A DNA stretch of 64,000 nt from Trichodelitschia bisporula (lineage: Eukaryota; Ascomycota; Dothideomycetes; Phaeotrichales; Phaeotrichaceae), in NCBI GenBank assembly GCA_010356995.1, contig ML996700.1, forward strand, positions 752,999 through 816,998, given 5' to 3'. Positions 658 through 53,281 of this stretch are shown here, one piece after another; within the stretch, counting starts at the first letter, position 1; each line of letters starts with the position of its first letter. The notes under the pieces were generated by a model. That model was given only the letters and a program-made list of their open reading frames with translations. It ran no database searches and was not told the origin of the DNA. Position numbers and translations under genes: made by a program.

Positions 658-841
658 ATGTCGTCGAGACTGACACGAGTACTCGATGGAGATTTCGGTG
701 TCTGTGGTTCAAAAAGTATGCCAAAAAAAAGTTCATTGCGGCTCCGGTCCTCAGTCTCTGAACGCCGCGTCCCGCTCCACAGCAATCATCAAACACATCG
801 GCCGCAGCAAAAACTACAAACGCACCACAGGCCGAAAAAAA

Positions 842-935
842 TGGAGGTTGCAAGAATCGAACTCGCGACCTTCCGCAATCTTCAAGATAGAACCTCGAAT
901 GCAAAGCGGATGCTCTACCTCTGAGCCAAACCCCC
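842..935 (-). tRNA. tRNA-Ala (anticodon TGC) with 22-nt intron
   Basis: Read on the minus strand the sequence folds as a complete tRNA: acceptor GGGGGTT/AACCTCC with discriminator A, D-arm GCTC/GAGC, anticodon stem TCCGC/GCGGA with loop TTTGCAT (anticodon TGC, alanine), five-base variable loop AGGTC, and T-arm GCGAG-TTCGATT-CTTGC. A 22-nt intron (878-899) interrupts the anticodon loop one base 3' of the anticodon, the standard position for nuclear tRNA introns. CCA is not encoded, as expected. It lies about 200 bp downstream of AFG2 on the opposite strand. Confidence 0.93.
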
Positions 936-2224
936 AATGATTGGACAATGTCTTTCCTTTTTAAGAATACATTCCAGATGCTAAGCATCGGGAGCCCGCA
1001 GACGTACGTTGAGTATATGTATCCTTGCAGCAGGATGAGATGTCGTGCCTGGCTCCTTGCTGTTCTCGTGTAACCTCCCCGCCTTGATTCCGACGTCGGG
1101 ATCCTCCTTCCCATCCTACCTCGTGAGGACAATGCACGGACGGCAGTTCAGCCTCGTGGGGCGCTTTTTGTGGGTCAGTCAGTCTCTGCTTCATGCATTG
1201 GGAAGAGTACCGCATGAAGCGCCTTTGCCATGCGACTGAAAATACGATGTTCATTCCTTTGTAGTTAGTAGCTCGACCAAAAAGGTTCAGAAGGATTGCT
1301 TTGGCATCATGAGGTCGGATGCTGCGGCTGGAAATGACGTCTGTAGAGTAACGCCACGTGATCCCAGCCCTCCGGCCAGCCTTGCCCGTGGCGTGGGCCC
1401 GCCCGCAACGTCTTTCGACCTATTTGAAGTCTTGCGGAATGCTGAGAGCTGGACCAGTGCTTGATCTGAAAGCTGTTGGGAAGTCCGTCGATAATGTCAA
1501 CATGTGTGGATTTGCGAAAAGGGAGTTGATCATCGTTAGCTTATTTTAAATCGGGGGAAGCCAACTCGAACTAGCGACATCGGACTTCTGATGAGGTTGT
1601 AGCGTGCGGAAGGAATACCGCCGTGAGATCCCAGCCTTCGTAATCCTATCAGTCCATGAAAGTTGACACCGTTCAAGAAGCCGTACTGGACAGCAACAGT
1701 CTGAAGCGTGGGCGCAGTGCTAATGAATTTGACATCAGGAACTCCAACATCCCGCCGCCGATCATGTTTTCGGCCGCCTTTATCTTCCTGTCGGCTAAGA
1801 GCCGGAAGAGATCAGACATCATATTACGAAATCGAAGGATGCGACTAAGGAAGCAATGACCAGAACTAGTACCGTATAATCATGGACTAGTGTAGCGCGT
1901 GCTTAGACCGGATTTTAAATCCGCCCTACAGTAGGCGATCCTTCACAGGTTCACCGGAATTCGACCGAGTTTCCCCGCAAGCGGGGCTCAAGCCAACGCC
2001 AACCGCTTTTAAATAGTAATTAACACAGCAGTTCCCACAAGCCGCATTGCCAAATCTCAGCCTCAACGTAAGTGCTGACCAGTGTCCAAGGGGTATTAAT
2101 TTTTATCCTAATGCTATGCACAATGACCGGTATCCCTTTCGTGATAGTCTTAGCCGTTCCGTTCAAGATTATGTACAGCCGGATGGCTCGAGAAATAAGC
2201 ATTATGCACCGAAGAATCCTCCGT
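936..2224. other. Intergenic region, no gene seen
   Basis: About 1.3 kb between the tRNA gene and the 3' end of the deacetylase gene. Open frames are short and overlap on several frames without family resemblance. At 1551-1610 the minus strand has a T-arm-like stretch (TTCGAGT between imperfect pairing arms), but no matching 5' half is present. Confidence 0.6.
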
Positions 2225-20159: not shown

Positions 20160-20678
20160 TTACGCGAACGGCGGCCTCCTCATGAACGGCATATTATGCC
20201 CTGGCAAAAAGTGCCCCGGGAAAGGCGCCATATTCCTCAGCTGAAACCAATCCCCTTCCTCACAGCGAAACGCAAGCGGGTGCATATATCGATCCGCATC
20301 TTTCAGCGGCCACTTCGCATCCGACCACGTCCACCGCTGCGGCGCGCGGTACCTCCTCGTCAGGAAATCGTACTGTTCATTTGGATCCCTTTTCGCCCAC
20401 GGCATCGGATCATTCGTGTTATCGAACAAAAACGGGTCCATCAGTGCGCGGTTCGTCCATCGTCCACGTGTTGGCCGATCACCGTGCGTTGAGATGAAGA
20501 TGTCAGGTCCGCGGCCTTGGAGCAGGTCTTTCGCGCGGCCTAGGCGGGAGGTGCGCTTGCCATCGCGCGGCCAGACGAAGCGTGGGCGGGGCTTTTGGCG
20601 TACTGAGTCCCAGGGAGCGTCATTTTCGTACTTGTGGGGCAGGGTGCCGTCGGGGAGGAAGACGGGGACGTATTCCAT
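20160..20678 (-). CDS. Unrecognised 172-residue protein rich in Trp, Pro and Arg
   Basis: Single exon with ATG at 20678. The product begins MEYVPVFLPDGTLPHKYEND and is rich in aromatic, Pro and Arg residues (for example YRAPQRWTWSDAKW), with no signal peptide or membrane segment. Frame length and consistent composition support coding. It is convergent with MED27, whose stop is only 89 bp away. No family was recognised. Confidence 0.6.
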   Translation of the reverse strand: MEYVPVFLPDGTLPHKYENDAPWDSVRQKPRPRFVWPRDGKRTSRLGRAKDLLQGRGPDIFISTHGDRPTRGRWTNRALMDPFLFDNTNDPMPWAKRDPNEQYDFLTRRYRAPQRWTWSDAKWPLKDADRYMHPLAFRCEEGDWFQLRNMAPFPGHFLPGHNMPFMRRPPFA

Positions 20679-21076
20679 CGTTTGGATTGTGTGCTCCGGT
20701 TGGCTGTGTGAATCTTAGATGGTGGGGGCTTAAATCAGACTTATAGCTTGGAAGCCTGGATGTTTGATCATTGACGGAACAAACGGGGGGCATCTGTGCT
20801 GGCAGGCGGGCGAGGTTTTGTCTCAGCAAACATGTTGGGTGAGAAAGGTTATTCGTAGTTTGGGTGGTGTACGATCGCTGTATTGGTTAGGTCCTGATGA
20901 TATGAACACCAGACGACAGCGTAATAATTGATCCAAAGTTTGACCTAGCAAGCGGTAAACGTGCGGTAGGGCAGTGAAGTTGAGCAACGCTTGTCAAGCT
21001 TGAGCGTGCGCTATCAATACATCTATTTTATGTACACCCGCAGCTCCAGCATCCGTCATCCTCGCAAACGGGGCGT
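20679..21076. other. Intergenic spacer
   Basis: About 400 bp between the start of the 172-residue gene and the 3' end of ATP8. Holds the promoter of the former and 3' UTR of the latter. No gene seen. Confidence 0.5.
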
Positions 21077-21485
21077 CTACAACTTGCTAATGAACAGGCG
21101 GGCAGCCATGACGCGCACACGCTGCGGCAGCAGGTACTTGGAGAAGAGGTAGATGAGCGCCGGCAGGCAGATGAAGGCAACGGTCGCCTCGTTGACGAAG
21201 TAGAAGGGAACGAGCTGCGGCATACCGGCGGCGAGGACTGTCTGGGAGTATTATCAGCTTATGTTCGATGACGGCGCTCCTATATGGGCCGAGCCGGGAG
21301 AGACAAACCAGCTTCGGGAAAGCCGCGGGCTTGGCATCCTCCTTCGCCACGCGGGCCGACGTCAATTGAGCAGACGCCGATTGCGCAACTGTCTTGGTGC
21401 TGAGGAAGGCGGCCGGGCGCGCAGTCAGCTGCGGCTGGCGGGCGAGGGCGCGCGCGAGCGGGCGGAAGAGACGGGCGGAGGACAT
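21077..21485 (-). CDS. ATP8: ATP synthase subunit 8, nuclear-encoded with mitochondrial presequence
   Basis: Two exons, 21485-21309 and 21241-21077, joined by a 67-bp intron (GTTTGT donor, CAG acceptor), encode 113 residues. The last 48 residues are a full-length subunit 8: MPQLVPFYFVNEATVAFICL at the start, one membrane span, and a basic end with the family's terminal FISKL. The first 65 residues form an Arg/Ala/Ser-rich, acid-poor targeting sequence (MSSARLFRPLARALARQ) with no counterpart in mitochondrial ATP8. The intron lies six codons before the ancestral methionine. Subunit 8 is part of the Fo stator in the inner mitochondrial membrane. In most fungi this gene is in mitochondrial DNA, so this copy suggests gene transfer to the nucleus. 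Standard codons, a spliceosomal intron and GC-rich coding argue against a recent mitochondrial insertion. It is divergent from NIC96. Confidence 0.92.
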
Positions 21486-21892
21486 GGCGGGTCTGGAGTA
21501 GGAGCAAGCGGTAGGTTAGCTTCGAGACGGGTTGCCAGGGTGTTTGATGGGGGTGGATTGGGGGCAAACTGACGAATTGCACTGTCGGCGACCAATGCGG
21601 ATGGCGGGATGCGGATGGTGATGGTGGTGGACGACGGTAATGGTGATGGAGGTGTGCGGTCGTTGTCGTCCGGAACGCAAATCGCTCCCGACGCCAAGGC
21701 TAGTCTGCATCCGATGTTTCCCCGAGAAGCGCGGATGGTCCGTGCGGGCTTTTGTTGCTGGTCCATTGGTTTCGTTTGCTTTTAGCTTTGGCGATGTTTG
21801 GTAGTTGACCTTGACTGCCTACAGGACTGTCCAGCACGCGCAACTTCGCCCTTACATCTCCACCACCCATAGCCAAATCCCATTCCACTGTC
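21486..21892. promoter_or_regulatory. Shared divergent promoter region ATP8 / NIC96
   Basis: The 407 bp between the two start codons must contain both promoters and both leaders. No clear TATA box is seen. A run of GATGGTGATGG-type repeats is present around 21597-21650. Confidence 0.5.
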
Positions 21893-24800
21893 ATGTCGCT
21901 CTTCGGCAATCAAGGAACGAGCGGTCTGTTCGGCGCTCCTGCTGCATCCAGCGCGCCGCAAACGAACTCCTTGTTTGGTAACACAACCGCGCAACAGACC
22001 CAACCAGCACAACAGCAGCAATCCCAACCGCAGCAATCACAAGGCAGTCTCTTCGGCGCTGCTCCCAAACCAACCCTCTCCCTCGGCGTGCCGAACCTGG
22101 CTTCTTCGACTGCTGCTACTCAGCAAGGCGGCCTCTTCGCCAACGCGACTGCGGGACCCGCGGCTCCTACGCTAGGCGGCTTTTCTCTGAATCAACAACA
22201 ACCGCAGGCGTCTGCTCCAGGGATGGCAGGTGCGCTAGGGATGGGAGGTGCTCCGGGGATGACAGGGCTTGGGGGCTCGCTGTTTGCGTCTACTGCGGCG
22301 CCGCCGCTGATGCAGCAGCAGCAGCAGCAGCAGCAGCAGCCCGATGCTCAAGCTCAGTCGACAACGACGCGTCCCACGCTGCAGTCGGCGTACTTTGACC
22401 AGATCCTCGAGCGCGGACGTAAGCGCAATGCTGCCGCTGGTGCGTTGCCGGACGTGCCTGGGCTCCAACTCGGACTGGGTGACATTGCGCGCAAAGCTCG
22501 GAACCTGGGAGCGGCTGACGCGCCGAAAGCGGGAGATACCAAGGCGTGAGTTTACGAGTCTGGTTCACGGACGCGGCTAACGGGTGCAGACACTACCTCC
22601 TCGCAGCATCGGGTGTTTCCACAGCTGCGGCGCTGCGCGATCTCAATGCCTTCAGTGCCCAGGCCGGCGCAGCTGCCGTTCCCGTTGCCTCGGGCGGCTT
22701 CTCCGACACCGACATTGAGAGCTTCGTGTCCAATATCCAGGCTCAATCGACGCTGGACATGATCCAGGAGGGACTCGAGCAGTCCAAGCGCGACTTTGAC
22801 ACCTTCCTCGAGGACAACGTGCAGATGAACTGGGACGCGCAGCGGCGGCGCATCTACGAGCACTTCGGCCTGGCGAAACCGAGCGAGCAGGAGCAGGAGA
22901 GCGCCGGAGGTGCTGATCCTACTGATCGCGGCGCATTCGGGCGCTCTGCTCGCCGCAGCAAGATTGGGGGATCTACAATGGCGTTCGGCCAGAGCGGGCT
23001 GAATAAGTCTATCCTGGGCAACTCTAGTGCGCGCGCTACTTTCCGGGCCAGCTCGTTTGAAGGTGCGGAAAAGACGCAGATGACGCTGCCGCCGGTGGAG
23101 GATCGCTTCCAGCGCGACAAGCAGGAGCGGTATGCAGCGACGGTCAAGGATCTCAACGCGTGTCGCAACCGTGAACTGTGCTATCCGGTTATCCACAAGT
23201 TCGCCGAAGTCGAGGAGCAAGCGGGTCTGGATAATACGGCGTCGCTGATCAGCGCGTACCAGGCGTTGGCATCTATCACGGGCGAGCCGAACGAGATCGT
23301 GCAGTCGTTTGAAGCGAGGGCAGCCAAGGAGCGCAAGTTTGCGGCGGATTACCTGGACGAGAACTCCAATTCGAGGAAGTCCATTGAGCTGCGGAAGCGA
23401 ATTATCGATGGGTCACGGCGGTGCTTGGAGAAGATGTGTGTGCATTTTCCAATGGTGATAATGGAGCTGACTCTCTAGATTTCTCAAAAAGATTGAGGAT
23501 ACCATAGCCAAAGACCCCAAGGTCGCCAACCTCGGTGGTATTCCTTCCCCAGTCAACAAGATCCGCGCCTACATCCGCGTCCTCTCCAGCCGCAAGGAAC
23601 TCGCGGCATCAGACAATATCAATCTGCAGTCAATCACAGAGGGCAGCAACGAAGACTACTGCTGGGTGATTCTCTACTTCATGCTGCGGGCCGGCCTCGT
23701 CAAGGAAGCCGCGCAGTACGTCGCCGACAACATAAAGGCCATCCGCACCATCGACCGTAAATTTTGCCAGTACATAGAGCGGTATGCCGCCGACGAGGAT
23801 CGCCGCTTGCCGCAGGACATGCGCCAGAGCATCAACAGTGAGTACAGCCAGAGGACCAAGATCGCGGCCGAAGACACGTTCGACCCGTACCGCATGGCCT
23901 GCTACAAGCTCGTCGGCCGCTGCGAGCTGTCACGCCGCGCGCTGGACAATATCCGCACCGACGAGGACGACTGGATGTGGCTGCAGTTCGCGCTTGCGCG
24001 GGAAGTCAACCGTGCCGAGGAGGCAGCTGGTGAGGTGTTTGGTCTCGAACAGATTCGGGAGATGGTTGCGGAGATCGGGCGTCGCCTCTTTGCCCCTGGG
24101 TCGGAGAATTCTCCTGGTGGTTTAGGCTTGCTCTTCTTCCTCCAGATCCTGTCCGGCATGTTCGAGCAAGCTGTTGCGACGCTCTATCCCACGAATCACG
24201 TGGCGGCTGTTCACTTCGCCATCGCGCTCGCGTACTATGGCTTGCTGCGCGTCGCGGATCTCAGCGCCACCGATCTACTCAGCTTTAACACCCGCCAGCA
24301 GCCGCGCATTCATTTCGCCCTGATGGTCGGTTACTACACTGGCGACTTCCGCGTCGCCCAGCCCGACGCTGCTGCCGACTACCTGATCCTGCTGTGTCTG
24401 AACGCGGACCTGCCCGGTGAAGCCGGCGTCCAGCAAGCGAAGCTCTGCCACGAAGGCCTGCGCGAGCTCGTTCTCGAAACCCGCGAATTCGCCCAGCTCC
24501 TCGGCGACGTGCGCGCCGACGGCGCGCGCCTGCCCGGCGCCATCGAGACGCGCCTGAAGCTCATCCGTATTCCCGGCGCCGCCGCCACCGACACCCAGCA
24601 ATTCGTGCACACGCTCACCGTGCAAGCCGCCGCCGCCGCAGACGATAACGGGCGCACCACCGACGCTGTGCTCCTCTACCATCTCGCCAACGAATACGAC
24701 CGCGTCATCAGCATCATAAACCGTACGCTGTCTGAGGCGCTGACGACCGAACTTGGGCATGAGCCTATGCACCTCGAGCCGCTGAAGCCCCGTGCTGCAC

Positions 24801-51194: not shown

Positions 51195-51832
51195 CTATGC
51201 CTTCGGAGCTGCCGGAGCTGTCGGAGCTGCTGATGCCGCCTCGCGCTCCTTCTGTGCTTGCCTCGCCTCAATCTCCTGCAACACCGCCGGCTTCTGTCCA
51301 TAATACTTGACCACATTCTGCTTAAACGGATGCTCATGCCCCTCAAACGCTGCTACCAGTTAGCTGCATCCCCCCGCACCCAACCCACGTCCCCTCAACT
51401 CACCCTTAAGCCTCCTCAACCGCACATCCCTCAGCCGATTCTTCGGCAACATGCCCCTCACCGCACGGCGCAGAATCTCCGCCCCACCCCACTTATCCAT
51501 CACCCGCTCCATGCTCATGGCCTTCAGACTTCCAGGTCGCGTCGTGTGCGTGTAGTACATCTTCTGTGCCATCTTCCGCCCCGTCACACGCAGGTCCTGA
51601 CATCCCACCGCGACTATGTAGTCGCCGCAGTCGGTCGATGGGTCATACATGGGCTTGTGTTTGCCCATGAGGGTGAGGGCGATGCGGCTTGCGAGTCGAC
51701 CGAGGGGAAGGGGGGACGCGGTGATGTCGAGGAGGTGCCAGGGACGGGCGTAGGCGAGGCGGGTCTGCGTGGTTAGGTCTTTGCGGGTGGGGGAGGGGAG
51801 GGAGGGCGTACCTTGCCCACGGCTTGGGACAT
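51195..51832 (-). CDS. MRPL23: Mitochondrial large-subunit ribosomal protein uL13m (MRPL23)
   Basis: Three exons: 51832-51812 (only seven codons, MSQAVGK), 51764-51404 and 51349-51195, encoding 178 residues. Conserved uL13 motifs: TRLAYARPWHLLD, LGRLASRIALTLMGKHKPMY, DPSTDCGDYIVAV, VTGRKMAQKMYYTHTTRPGS and AVRGMLPKNRLR. The longer ATG frame reaching to 52067 is not the start: the short first exon matches the known MSQxVGK start of the family and is followed by a clean GTACGC-CGCAG intron. The last exon adds KQNVVKYYGQKPAVLQEIEA and an Ala/Pro-rich tail. The last intron ends in a TAGCAG tandem acceptor. Confidence 0.93.
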
Positions 51833-53281
51833 GGTGGTGGTGCGGGCTGGCCCTGGTGGATGGTTGGCTGGTTATGGGGGGGCGAGAGCTGAGAGGAGGG
51901 TTCAATTGAGCGGATGTGGGTGTGGTGGTCGTGATGCGGCGGAGGTGTTGCGGGCTGGCGTTTTGCGGTCGGCGTGGAAAAATCCGGATGCGGCTAGCGC
52001 CCGGGCTTTTCGGGATGGGCCGAGTGGGAGTGACGAGAGCTCCGAGACGTAAAAAGCCGAACATCAAAACCTATCGTTCGGTTTTTACTTTCCTAAGACT
52101 GGGTTCCTTGATTCCGCATACTCAGGTTTGTTCTCCGTCGGAGCATCACAAAATGCGAGCATGGGTTGATTTTTGTATGATTTTTAGGTTGCATGTAAGA
52201 TCACATTGATGTCGACATTGCGAGCTCCGCATTACAAGCCTTGATATCTCCATGACTACTGGGAGTCTGACCACTTCCCTTTCCTCATCTTTCTCATTTT
52301 CGAACTAAGTAGTAGTCCAAGTAGCAGGCATACCGTACTGATATCCTCTTTAGTGACCCAATTCATCGATGAAAGTAGCCGGGCAGCCGAGCCATGCCAC
52401 GACGGAACGTCTCATGGAAGAACCGGGCTGAAGCGCCGCCCAAAGGATATATAGGAATTGGGGGAGTGTGGAGCACCACGGCTATCGTGATGTCCTATCA
52501 TACTACATCGGTTGAGTTCCTTGTGCGTGTCCCACCGGGAGACGTTGGAGAAGTCAAGGCATCAACGGCCGTATAATTAGCTTCAGGCCTCTGCGGCCAG
52601 GGACATCGATATGAGTTCGCTGATTCATCTGCATTGCAGTCCGCAACTTCATTAAATCATATCCCAAAGCCTGTCCGGCGCTCAGTGAAGCAGCAAACTA
52701 TCGTGAAGCAGCATATGAAACGAGGTCAACTTAAGCTCTACGCACAGCACAGTTAGCCATCAAGCCATCTGCTCGCTCCGCCAGGTGAAACATACGTCCA
52801 TTGGACATCGAACGCATTACCGAAAGCACCAACATATTGTAAAGCGACCAGGCCGGCCTATCCACAGAAGTGCGATATCATTGGATCCCCAAGCTCATCC
52901 ATGTGGTGGGACGCCTGACGGTCTGCCTTGCCGTACCACTAAACCCGCGAGACCGTGGCTGTGACGCAGGTGCACGAACCCCGAAGCTCAGAGTATTTGA
53001 CGTCAGGGAACATGAGCTGATCAACGTTGGCTCCATCAACGAAAGCATTGAAGCACCAACACGAGTTCCAAGTCATCGTTATGCTAAATGTACACAGCTT
53101 AGGCTCTCAACCCAAGCACGATTAATTACCGAGTGTCTGCCCTATGCGCGTCGAACACATGCACCAAAAAAGTTCACGAAGCGCGCTGCGACAGGATTAC
53201 TGCCGCAAAGAAGTAACGCCACCCCAATGCCCAAAGCACCACCGGCGCCGTCGCCAACCGCCTCCCAATGCAACCGCGACT
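51833..53281. other. Intergenic region, no gene seen
   Basis: About 1.45 kb between the MRPL23 start and the ERG25 3' end. Short ORFs only, none with family resemblance. Confidence 0.5.

What the first reader, a model, noticed from the sequence alone, without database searches (positions are those of the whole stretch)
21077..21485. ATP synthase subunit 8 encoded in the nucleus with an acquired presequence
Seen: a complete 48-residue ATP8 (starts MPQLVPF, ends FISKL) is preceded by a 65-residue Arg/Ala-rich sequence and interrupted by a 67-bp spliceosomal intron six codons before the ancestral start. Established: fungal atp8 is normally in mitochondrial DNA, and subunit 8 must reach the inner membrane from the matrix side. 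Inference: a completed mitochondrion-to-nucleus transfer, with the intron marking the join of targeting exon and old gene. The span holds a charged residue (Glu) and many small residues, which may reflect lower hydrophobicity needed for import.
Basis: partly seen in the sequence, partly recalled or inferred. Interest (0 to 1): 0.75.

Follow-up and report, generated by a model that had tools for sequence, protein, structure and literature searches.

The report
Nuclear-encoded fungal ATP synthase subunit 8
In this fungus a tiny ATP synthase part that is normally made inside mitochondria is encoded in the nucleus behind an address tag and an intron; the gene looks real and working, but the same kind of move has already been reported in related fungi.

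Summary
A two-exon gene on the minus strand (21485-21309, 67-bp intron 21308-21242, 21241-21077) encodes a 113-residue protein: 65 N-terminal residues followed by a complete 48-residue fungal ATP synthase subunit 8 (PF05933, profile 1-48 of 48, E 2.3e-19). The N-terminus looks like a matrix-targeting presequence (first 30 residues: 5 Arg, no Asp/Glu, amphipathic). The gene lies in GC-rich nuclear DNA beside NIC96; its GC3 is 0.90 against 0.06-0.25 in six AT-rich mtDNA-type relatives. It is most likely a functional relocated atp8, imported to the matrix and inserted from there. No genome, mtDNA or transcripts are held, so loss of mitochondrial atp8, splicing and import are inferred. The hydrophobicity argument is undecided and its Glu part fails: Glu12 is in 4 of 7 mtDNA-encoded comparators. 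Novelty is low: nuclear atp8 with a predicted targeting peptide was reported for Stemphylium lycopersici (Pleosporales) in 2017, and Pleosporales mtDNAs are reported to lack atp8 (PMC5626475, PMC6221350, PMC11167856; passages). I did not see an intron near the joint described (nine literature searches, 13 papers opened by passages).

The parts
21309..21485 (-). Exon 1: residues 1-59, presequence-like (MSSARLFRPLARALARQPQLTARPAAFLST...), intron phase 0 after codon 59
   Evidence: charge and amphipathicity; base rate
21242..21308 (-). 67-bp spliceosomal-type intron, donor GTTTGT, branch-like CTGAT, acceptor CCCAG
   Evidence: inferred from frame and consensus, no transcripts available
21077..21241 (-). 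Exon 2: TVLAAG plus the 48-residue ATP8 core and TAG stop
21080..21223 (-). ATP8 core (MPQLVPFYFVNEATVAFICLPALIYLFSKYLLPQRVRVMAARLFISKL), Pfam PF05933 1-48 of 48
21486..21892 (.). 407-bp stretch between the atp8 ATG and the presumed ATG of the divergent NIC96 gene (21893); presumed bidirectional promoter; CCAAT/ATTGG at 21557, 21592, 21765 (not tested against chance)
   Evidence: NIC96 frames; promoter role is inference

Best explanation
This is a functional nuclear gene for ATP synthase subunit 8 (A6L) of a filamentous ascomycete, moved from mtDNA to the nucleus. Shown from sequence: an intact 48-residue ATP8 in nuclear-type DNA and codon usage, behind a presequence-like N-terminus, with a frame-restoring intron six codons before the old start. 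Inferred: the spliced mRNA is translated in the cytosol; the basic amphipathic N-terminus takes the precursor through TOM and TIM23 to the matrix; the processing peptidase removes it; and the short membrane span is inserted by Oxa1 from the matrix side, leaving the N-terminus outside and the Arg/Lys-rich C-terminus in the matrix, where it joins the Fo stator. The mtDNA copy has presumably been lost.
For: Full-length Pfam match well above the cut-off (69.7 bits against 26.1) and gapless match to PDB 6b2z_A ATP8. Intact frame; GC by codon position 0.56/0.33/0.90 in the window against GC3 0.06-0.25 in six mtDNA-type relatives; against these, second positions differ at 9-11 of 48 and third positions at 39-44 of 48. 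N-terminus: 5 basic and 0 acidic residues in the first 30, hydrophobic moment 0.85 in a 14-residue window, reached by 0.4% of 5000 shuffles; with the cut-off set at that observed value, 4 of 491 ATG starts with 60 open codons in the window meet the three-part criterion, this one and three nested starts of one Arg-rich frame. Neighbouring frames are nuclear fungal genes: Nic96 (E 7.5e-184) and HET. Precedent: nuclear atp8 with a TargetP-predicted targeting peptide in Stemphylium lycopersici (PMC5626475, passages); recoded yeast ATP8 plus a targeting sequence works from the nucleus (PMC3420929, passages).
Against: No transcript, proteome or mtDNA of this organism was available, so expression, splicing and loss of the mtDNA copy are not shown. 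No targeting predictor was run; charge and moment are crude. No clear canonical processing site was identified. GTTTGT is recalled as a less common fungal donor, and 4 other GT-AG pairs also keep the frame. The codon-position pattern (second positions fewest changes) is also seen between the mtDNA relatives themselves (second 1-10, third 12-24 of 48 in 15 pairs), so it shows constraint on the protein but not when it acted. The window protein has the most private residues of the 8 compared, 14 of 48, against 1-11 in the others.
Confidence: 0.92

Rival explanations
1. A nuclear insertion of mtDNA (NUMT) or a dying pseudogene without function, the real subunit 8 still being made in the mitochondrion.
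For: Mitochondrial DNA of this organism is not held, so a mitochondrial copy cannot be excluded. 14 of 48 residues are private to the window protein.
Against: GC3 0.90 with the whole protein still matching the Pfam profile, intact frame, presequence-like exon and usable intron. No sign of other mitochondrial genes in the window: tblastn of six other mtDNA-encoded frames from L002-L004 (labelled by recall ATP9, ATP6, NAD1, COX1, COX3 and a further NAD) gave no hit at E 1 or better.
Confidence: 0.04
2. A dual-coded state: a working nuclear copy alongside a retained mitochondrial copy.
For: Not excluded, since no mtDNA is held.
Against: In the published Pleosporales mtDNAs described in PMC5626475, PMC6221350 and PMC11167856 (passages) atp8 is absent; whether the window is from Pleosporales is unknown.
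Confidence: 0.04
3. Transfer as in the best explanation, but the intron was gained after the fusion and does not mark the joint of a captured targeting exon.
For: The intron lies six codons away from the old start and not on it; no donor gene for the presequence was found: PDB matches to it are noise (E 0.65) and the only other window match is weak (E 0.049) in a stretch that holds a stop.
Against: An intron close to the joint is what capture of a targeting exon would leave. The search for a donor covered only the window and the PDB.
Confidence: 0.5
4. No intron: exon 1 and ATP8 are one continuous frame and the assembly carries a small length error between them.
For: The exon-1 frame stays open through the intron stretch, and the exon-2 frame is open from 21250.
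Against: Donor, branch-like site and acceptor are all present at the right places for a short fungal intron; an assembly error would be a coincidence.
Confidence: 0.03

Closest known systems
Nuclear atp8 of Stemphylium lycopersici, locus tag TW65_04673 (PMC5626475, 2017; passages read)
   Same: Fungal atp8 in nuclear DNA, longer than the mitochondrial homologue by an N-terminal extension predicted as mitochondrial targeting peptide
   Different: Sequence, intron and neighbours of that gene were not available here; the window's organism is unidentified
Pleosporales mtDNAs lacking atp8 and atp9 (PMC4366305, PMC6221350, PMC11167856, PMC11881002; passages read)
   Same: Loss of atp8 from mtDNA, which implies a nuclear copy
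   Different: Those papers describe the mtDNA side; in the passages I saw, only PMC11881002 and PMC5626475 state a move to the nucleus, and PMC11167856 speaks of loss
Botryosphaeriales mtDNAs with atp9 but apparently no atp8 (Macrophomina phaseolina PMC8451660; Neofusicoccum parvum in PMC4366305; passages read)
   Same: atp8 absent from the listed mitochondrial genes (Macrophomina) or implied absent (N. parvum)
   Different: No nuclear copy described in the passages read; PMC8451660 nevertheless names atp8 in the gene set of its tree; whether the window belongs here is unknown
Yeast ATP8 (PDB 6b2z_A) and allotopic yeast ATP8 (PMC3420929, passages)
   Same: Homologous 48-residue protein; per PMC3420929 allotopic expression needed only a targeting sequence and recoding
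   Different: Yeast gene is naturally mitochondrial; 26 of 48 residues identical by the 54%

Membership tests
Fungal ATP synthase subunit 8 (PF05933) | Full-length profile match above gathering score | tested here: met
   69.7 bits against 26.1, profile 1-48 of 48
Fungal ATP synthase subunit 8 (PF05933) | MPQLVPF start, single hydrophobic span, basic C-terminal part | tested here: met
   22 columns invariant across four sequences, 17 across all eight; R35, R37, R42, K47 after the span
Relocated nuclear mitochondrial gene | Located in nuclear DNA with nuclear-type codon use | tested here: met
   GC 0.52-0.63 over the window, Nic96 and HET neighbours, GC3 0.90 against 0.77 in the main Nic96 exon
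Relocated nuclear mitochondrial gene | Targeting presequence | tested here: inconclusive
   Composition and amphipathicity fit; no predictor or import assay
Relocated nuclear mitochondrial gene | Mitochondrial copy lost | not testable with these tools
   No genome held for the window
Relocated nuclear mitochondrial gene | Expressed and spliced | not testable with these tools
   No transcript data
Pleosporales-type atp8 transfer | Orthologous presequence, intron and neighbours shared with Pleosporales nuclear atp8 | not testable with these tools
   No collection of fungal nuclear genomes on hand; the paper's alignment figure is not held

The most novel reading that the evidence does not exclude
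The window comes from a fungus outside Pleosporales (for example one of the lineages whose mtDNA keeps atp9 but lacks atp8), and its intron-split presequence records a targeting exon captured from another nuclear gene, which would date the atp8 transfer before, or separately from, the atp9 transfer.
Probability: 0.25. Interest if true: 0.35.

Novelty: new member of a known kind. Interest (0 to 1): 0.2.

Why it matters
It is a clear case of a mitochondrial gene that sits in the nucleus with its protein kept whole. atp8 is among the genes rarely transferred (named among those with fewer than 6 transfers in PMC10809612, passage), so each fungal nuclear copy helps to show how presequences are gained and whether subunit 8 had to change to be imported.

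Tried and rejected
Searching the window's own genome for atp8 failed, because none is held. Two viral-contig scans gave the same two fungal mtDNA-like loci (L001, L002; 2 of 84 and 2 of 16 candidate stretches), and the one genome-contig scan gave four fungal-type mtDNA contigs inside bacterial assemblies (L003-L006; 4 of 6 candidate stretches). None is a nuclear atp8, so conservation of presequence and intron could not be tested. The organism could not be placed: the Nic96 frame against the PDB gives NIC96/Nup93 entries without class-level resolution.

Rejected: Glu12 as import adaptation (Glu12 in 4 of 7 comparators). Left open: lower hydrophobicity of the span (columns 13-31 by Kyte-Doolittle: 1.70 in the window, 1.51 in L001, 1.89-2.59 in the other six; Hessa-type minimum 2.85 in the window, 2.81 in L001, -1.26 to 1.25 in the other six; small residues in columns 12-34: 6 in the window, 7 in L001, 2-4 in the others). 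A NUMT reading was rejected for lack of other mitochondrial genes and for composition. A presequence donor was sought in the PDB and in the window only, with no credible match. Structure prediction was not run: the spliced protein is not contiguous in the window, and a single helix would add little. The Cladosporium paper PMC7748603 (passage) names atp8 only in a figure legend and was not used.

Literature searches (nine). Listings were complete for (31; 3; 10; 5; 1), and capped at 20 for (of 23; of 27; of 263; of 23). Thirteen papers were opened, all by passages and none in full. A description of an intron near the fusion joint was not seen in those listings and passages.

Full report
What is there. 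On the minus strand at 21485-21077 lies a two-exon gene. Exon 1 (177 nt) gives 59 residues, a 67-bp intron follows in phase 0, and exon 2 gives TVLAAG, then the complete 48-residue ATP8 and a TAG stop. The start ATG has G at -3.

Identity. The protein matches Pfam Fun_ATP-synt_8 over the whole profile, E 2.3e-19, and the ATP8 of PDB 6b2z_A (yeast by recall), E 1.9e-10, without gaps. Six further relatives were fetched: two from IMG/VR records and four from bacterial assemblies. All six loci are AT-rich (GC 0.26-0.33). In five of the six (all but L002) the next long frame after atp8 begins in the way I recognise, by recall, as ATP6; in L002 an ATP9-like frame lies upstream. So they serve as mtDNA-encoded comparators. 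Their ATP8s share 23-28 of 48 residues with the window's; 17 columns are invariant in all eight sequences with the 6b2z_A one.

Nuclear setting. The window has GC 0.52-0.63. Of 30 frames that I chose for Pfam (29 of the 67 of at least 180 codons, and one of 168), 11 matched at E 0.001 or better, among them Nic96, HET, an RSN1-type channel and a fungal rhodopsin (count of 67). The three divergent frames next to atp8 belong to NIC96: the last carries the Nic96 domain, the middle matches the NIC96 N-terminal parts in the PDB (E 5.8e-25), and the first has only a sub-threshold nucleoporin FG match (29.3 bits against 32.2), so the start at 21893, 407 bp from the atp8 ATG, is presumed. The atp8 core has GC3 0.90 against 0.06-0.25 in the six comparators; the main Nic96 exon has 0.77. 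Against the comparators, 9-11 of 48 second positions and 39-44 of 48 third positions differ. Among the comparators themselves (15 pairs) the figures are 1-10 and 12-24, so the pattern shows constraint on the protein but does not date it to after the transfer; the whole, unbroken frame with nuclear composition is the better argument that it is not a recent mtDNA insertion. tblastn of six other mtDNA-encoded frames found nothing in the window at E 1 or better.

Presequence. The first 30 residues have five Arg and no Asp/Glu; SARLFRPLARALAR reaches a hydrophobic moment of 0.85, equalled by 0.4% of 5000 shuffles. As a base rate, with the cut-off set at the observed value, 4 of 491 ATG starts with 60 open codons in the window meet the same criterion: this one, and three nested starts of one Arg-rich frame. 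No targeting program was available. There is no clear canonical cleavage motif; R23 and R45 are candidates (inference).

Intron. The unspliced exon-1 frame never reads ATP8, and the exon-2 frame is open only from 21250, three codons before the acceptor. Of 60 GT-AG pairs of at least 40 nt before the old Met, 5 keep the frame open. Three of these share the CCCAG acceptor and the CTGAT branch-like site; of the donors, GTTTGT is the most usual-looking by recalled fungal consensus. A small assembly error instead of an intron is not strictly excluded. Whether the intron marks a captured targeting exon or was gained later cannot be told; in plants, presequences of transferred genes have come from other nuclear genes for mitochondrial proteins or from unknown sources (PMC8317393, passages).

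Hydrophobicity. Over columns 13-31 the mean Kyte-Doolittle value is 1.70 in the window; the seven comparators give 1.51 (L001), 1.89, 1.97 (6b2z_A), 2.07, 2.22, 2.34 and 2.59. So 6 of 7 are more hydrophobic and 1 of 7 is less. By the Hessa-type sum the window (2.85) is the least hydrophobic of the eight, L001 next (2.81), the rest -1.26 to 1.25. The trend fits the idea of easier import but does not set the nuclear protein apart from L001. Glu12 is present in 4 of 7 comparators, so it is no adaptation to import. The window protein has the most private residues of the eight, 14 of 48, which fits either faster change after transfer or mere distance. Recoded yeast ATP8 with a targeting sequence works from the nucleus (PMC3420929, passages), so no further change need have been required.

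Mechanism. From established knowledge of ATP8 topology (N-terminus in the intermembrane space, C-terminus in the matrix; recalled), a presequence-borne import into the matrix followed by Oxa1-type insertion fits: the basic C-terminal part stays in the matrix. TIM23 stop-transfer would give the wrong orientation. These steps are inferred.

What is known. PMC5626475 (passages) reports nuclear atp8 and atp9 with predicted targeting peptides in Stemphylium lycopersici, and absence of both from the mtDNA of other Pleosporales. PMC4366305, PMC6221350, PMC11167856, PMC7225605, PMC5722872 and PMC11881002 (passages) report the same absence for further Pleosporales, and PMC11881002 says that the genes moved to the nucleus. 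Seven Mycosphaerellaceae (Capnodiales) keep atp8 in mtDNA (PMC7999263, passages). In Botryosphaeriales, the Macrophomina paper lists atp6 and atp9 as its ATP synthase genes, though it names atp8 in its tree's gene set (PMC8451660, passages), and PMC4366305 implies that Neofusicoccum parvum has atp9 but no atp8. The window's organism was not identified, so I cannot say whether this is the Pleosporales event, a wider Dothideomycete event, or an independent one.

Verdict. A real and very probably functional nuclear atp8, of a kind already in print. Interest is low to modest.

Noticed in passing
window 20163-20714 (-): 184-aa frame next to atp8 with a weak match to NDUFA4/B12D (residues 86-119, PDB E 0.0072; Pfam B12D E 0.42, below its cut-off); possibly another mitochondrial protein, unproven.
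   Followed up: partly
L003-L006: Fungal-type mtDNA contigs inside bacterial assemblies (Streptomyces albospinus, a Bacilli MAG, an Atribacteria MAG, Tolypothrix sp.): likely contamination.
   Followed up: partly
L001, L002: Fungal-type mtDNA (atp8 with an ATP6- or ATP9-like neighbour and frames that look, by recall, like homing endonucleases) filed as viral contigs in IMG/VR.
   Followed up: partly
window 841-936 (-): tRNA-Cys (GCA) of 96 bases, long enough to suggest an intron.
   Followed up: no
window 51363-52070 (-): Ribosomal L13 family frame with about 110 residues before the domain, perhaps a mitochondrial ribosomal protein.
   Followed up: no
window 21080-21223 (-): The window ATP8 has 14 private residues among eight compared sequences, several in the membrane span (A13, V15, I18, C19, P21, A22, I24, L31) and a shifted Arg (Q34, R35); cause unknown.
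   Followed up: no
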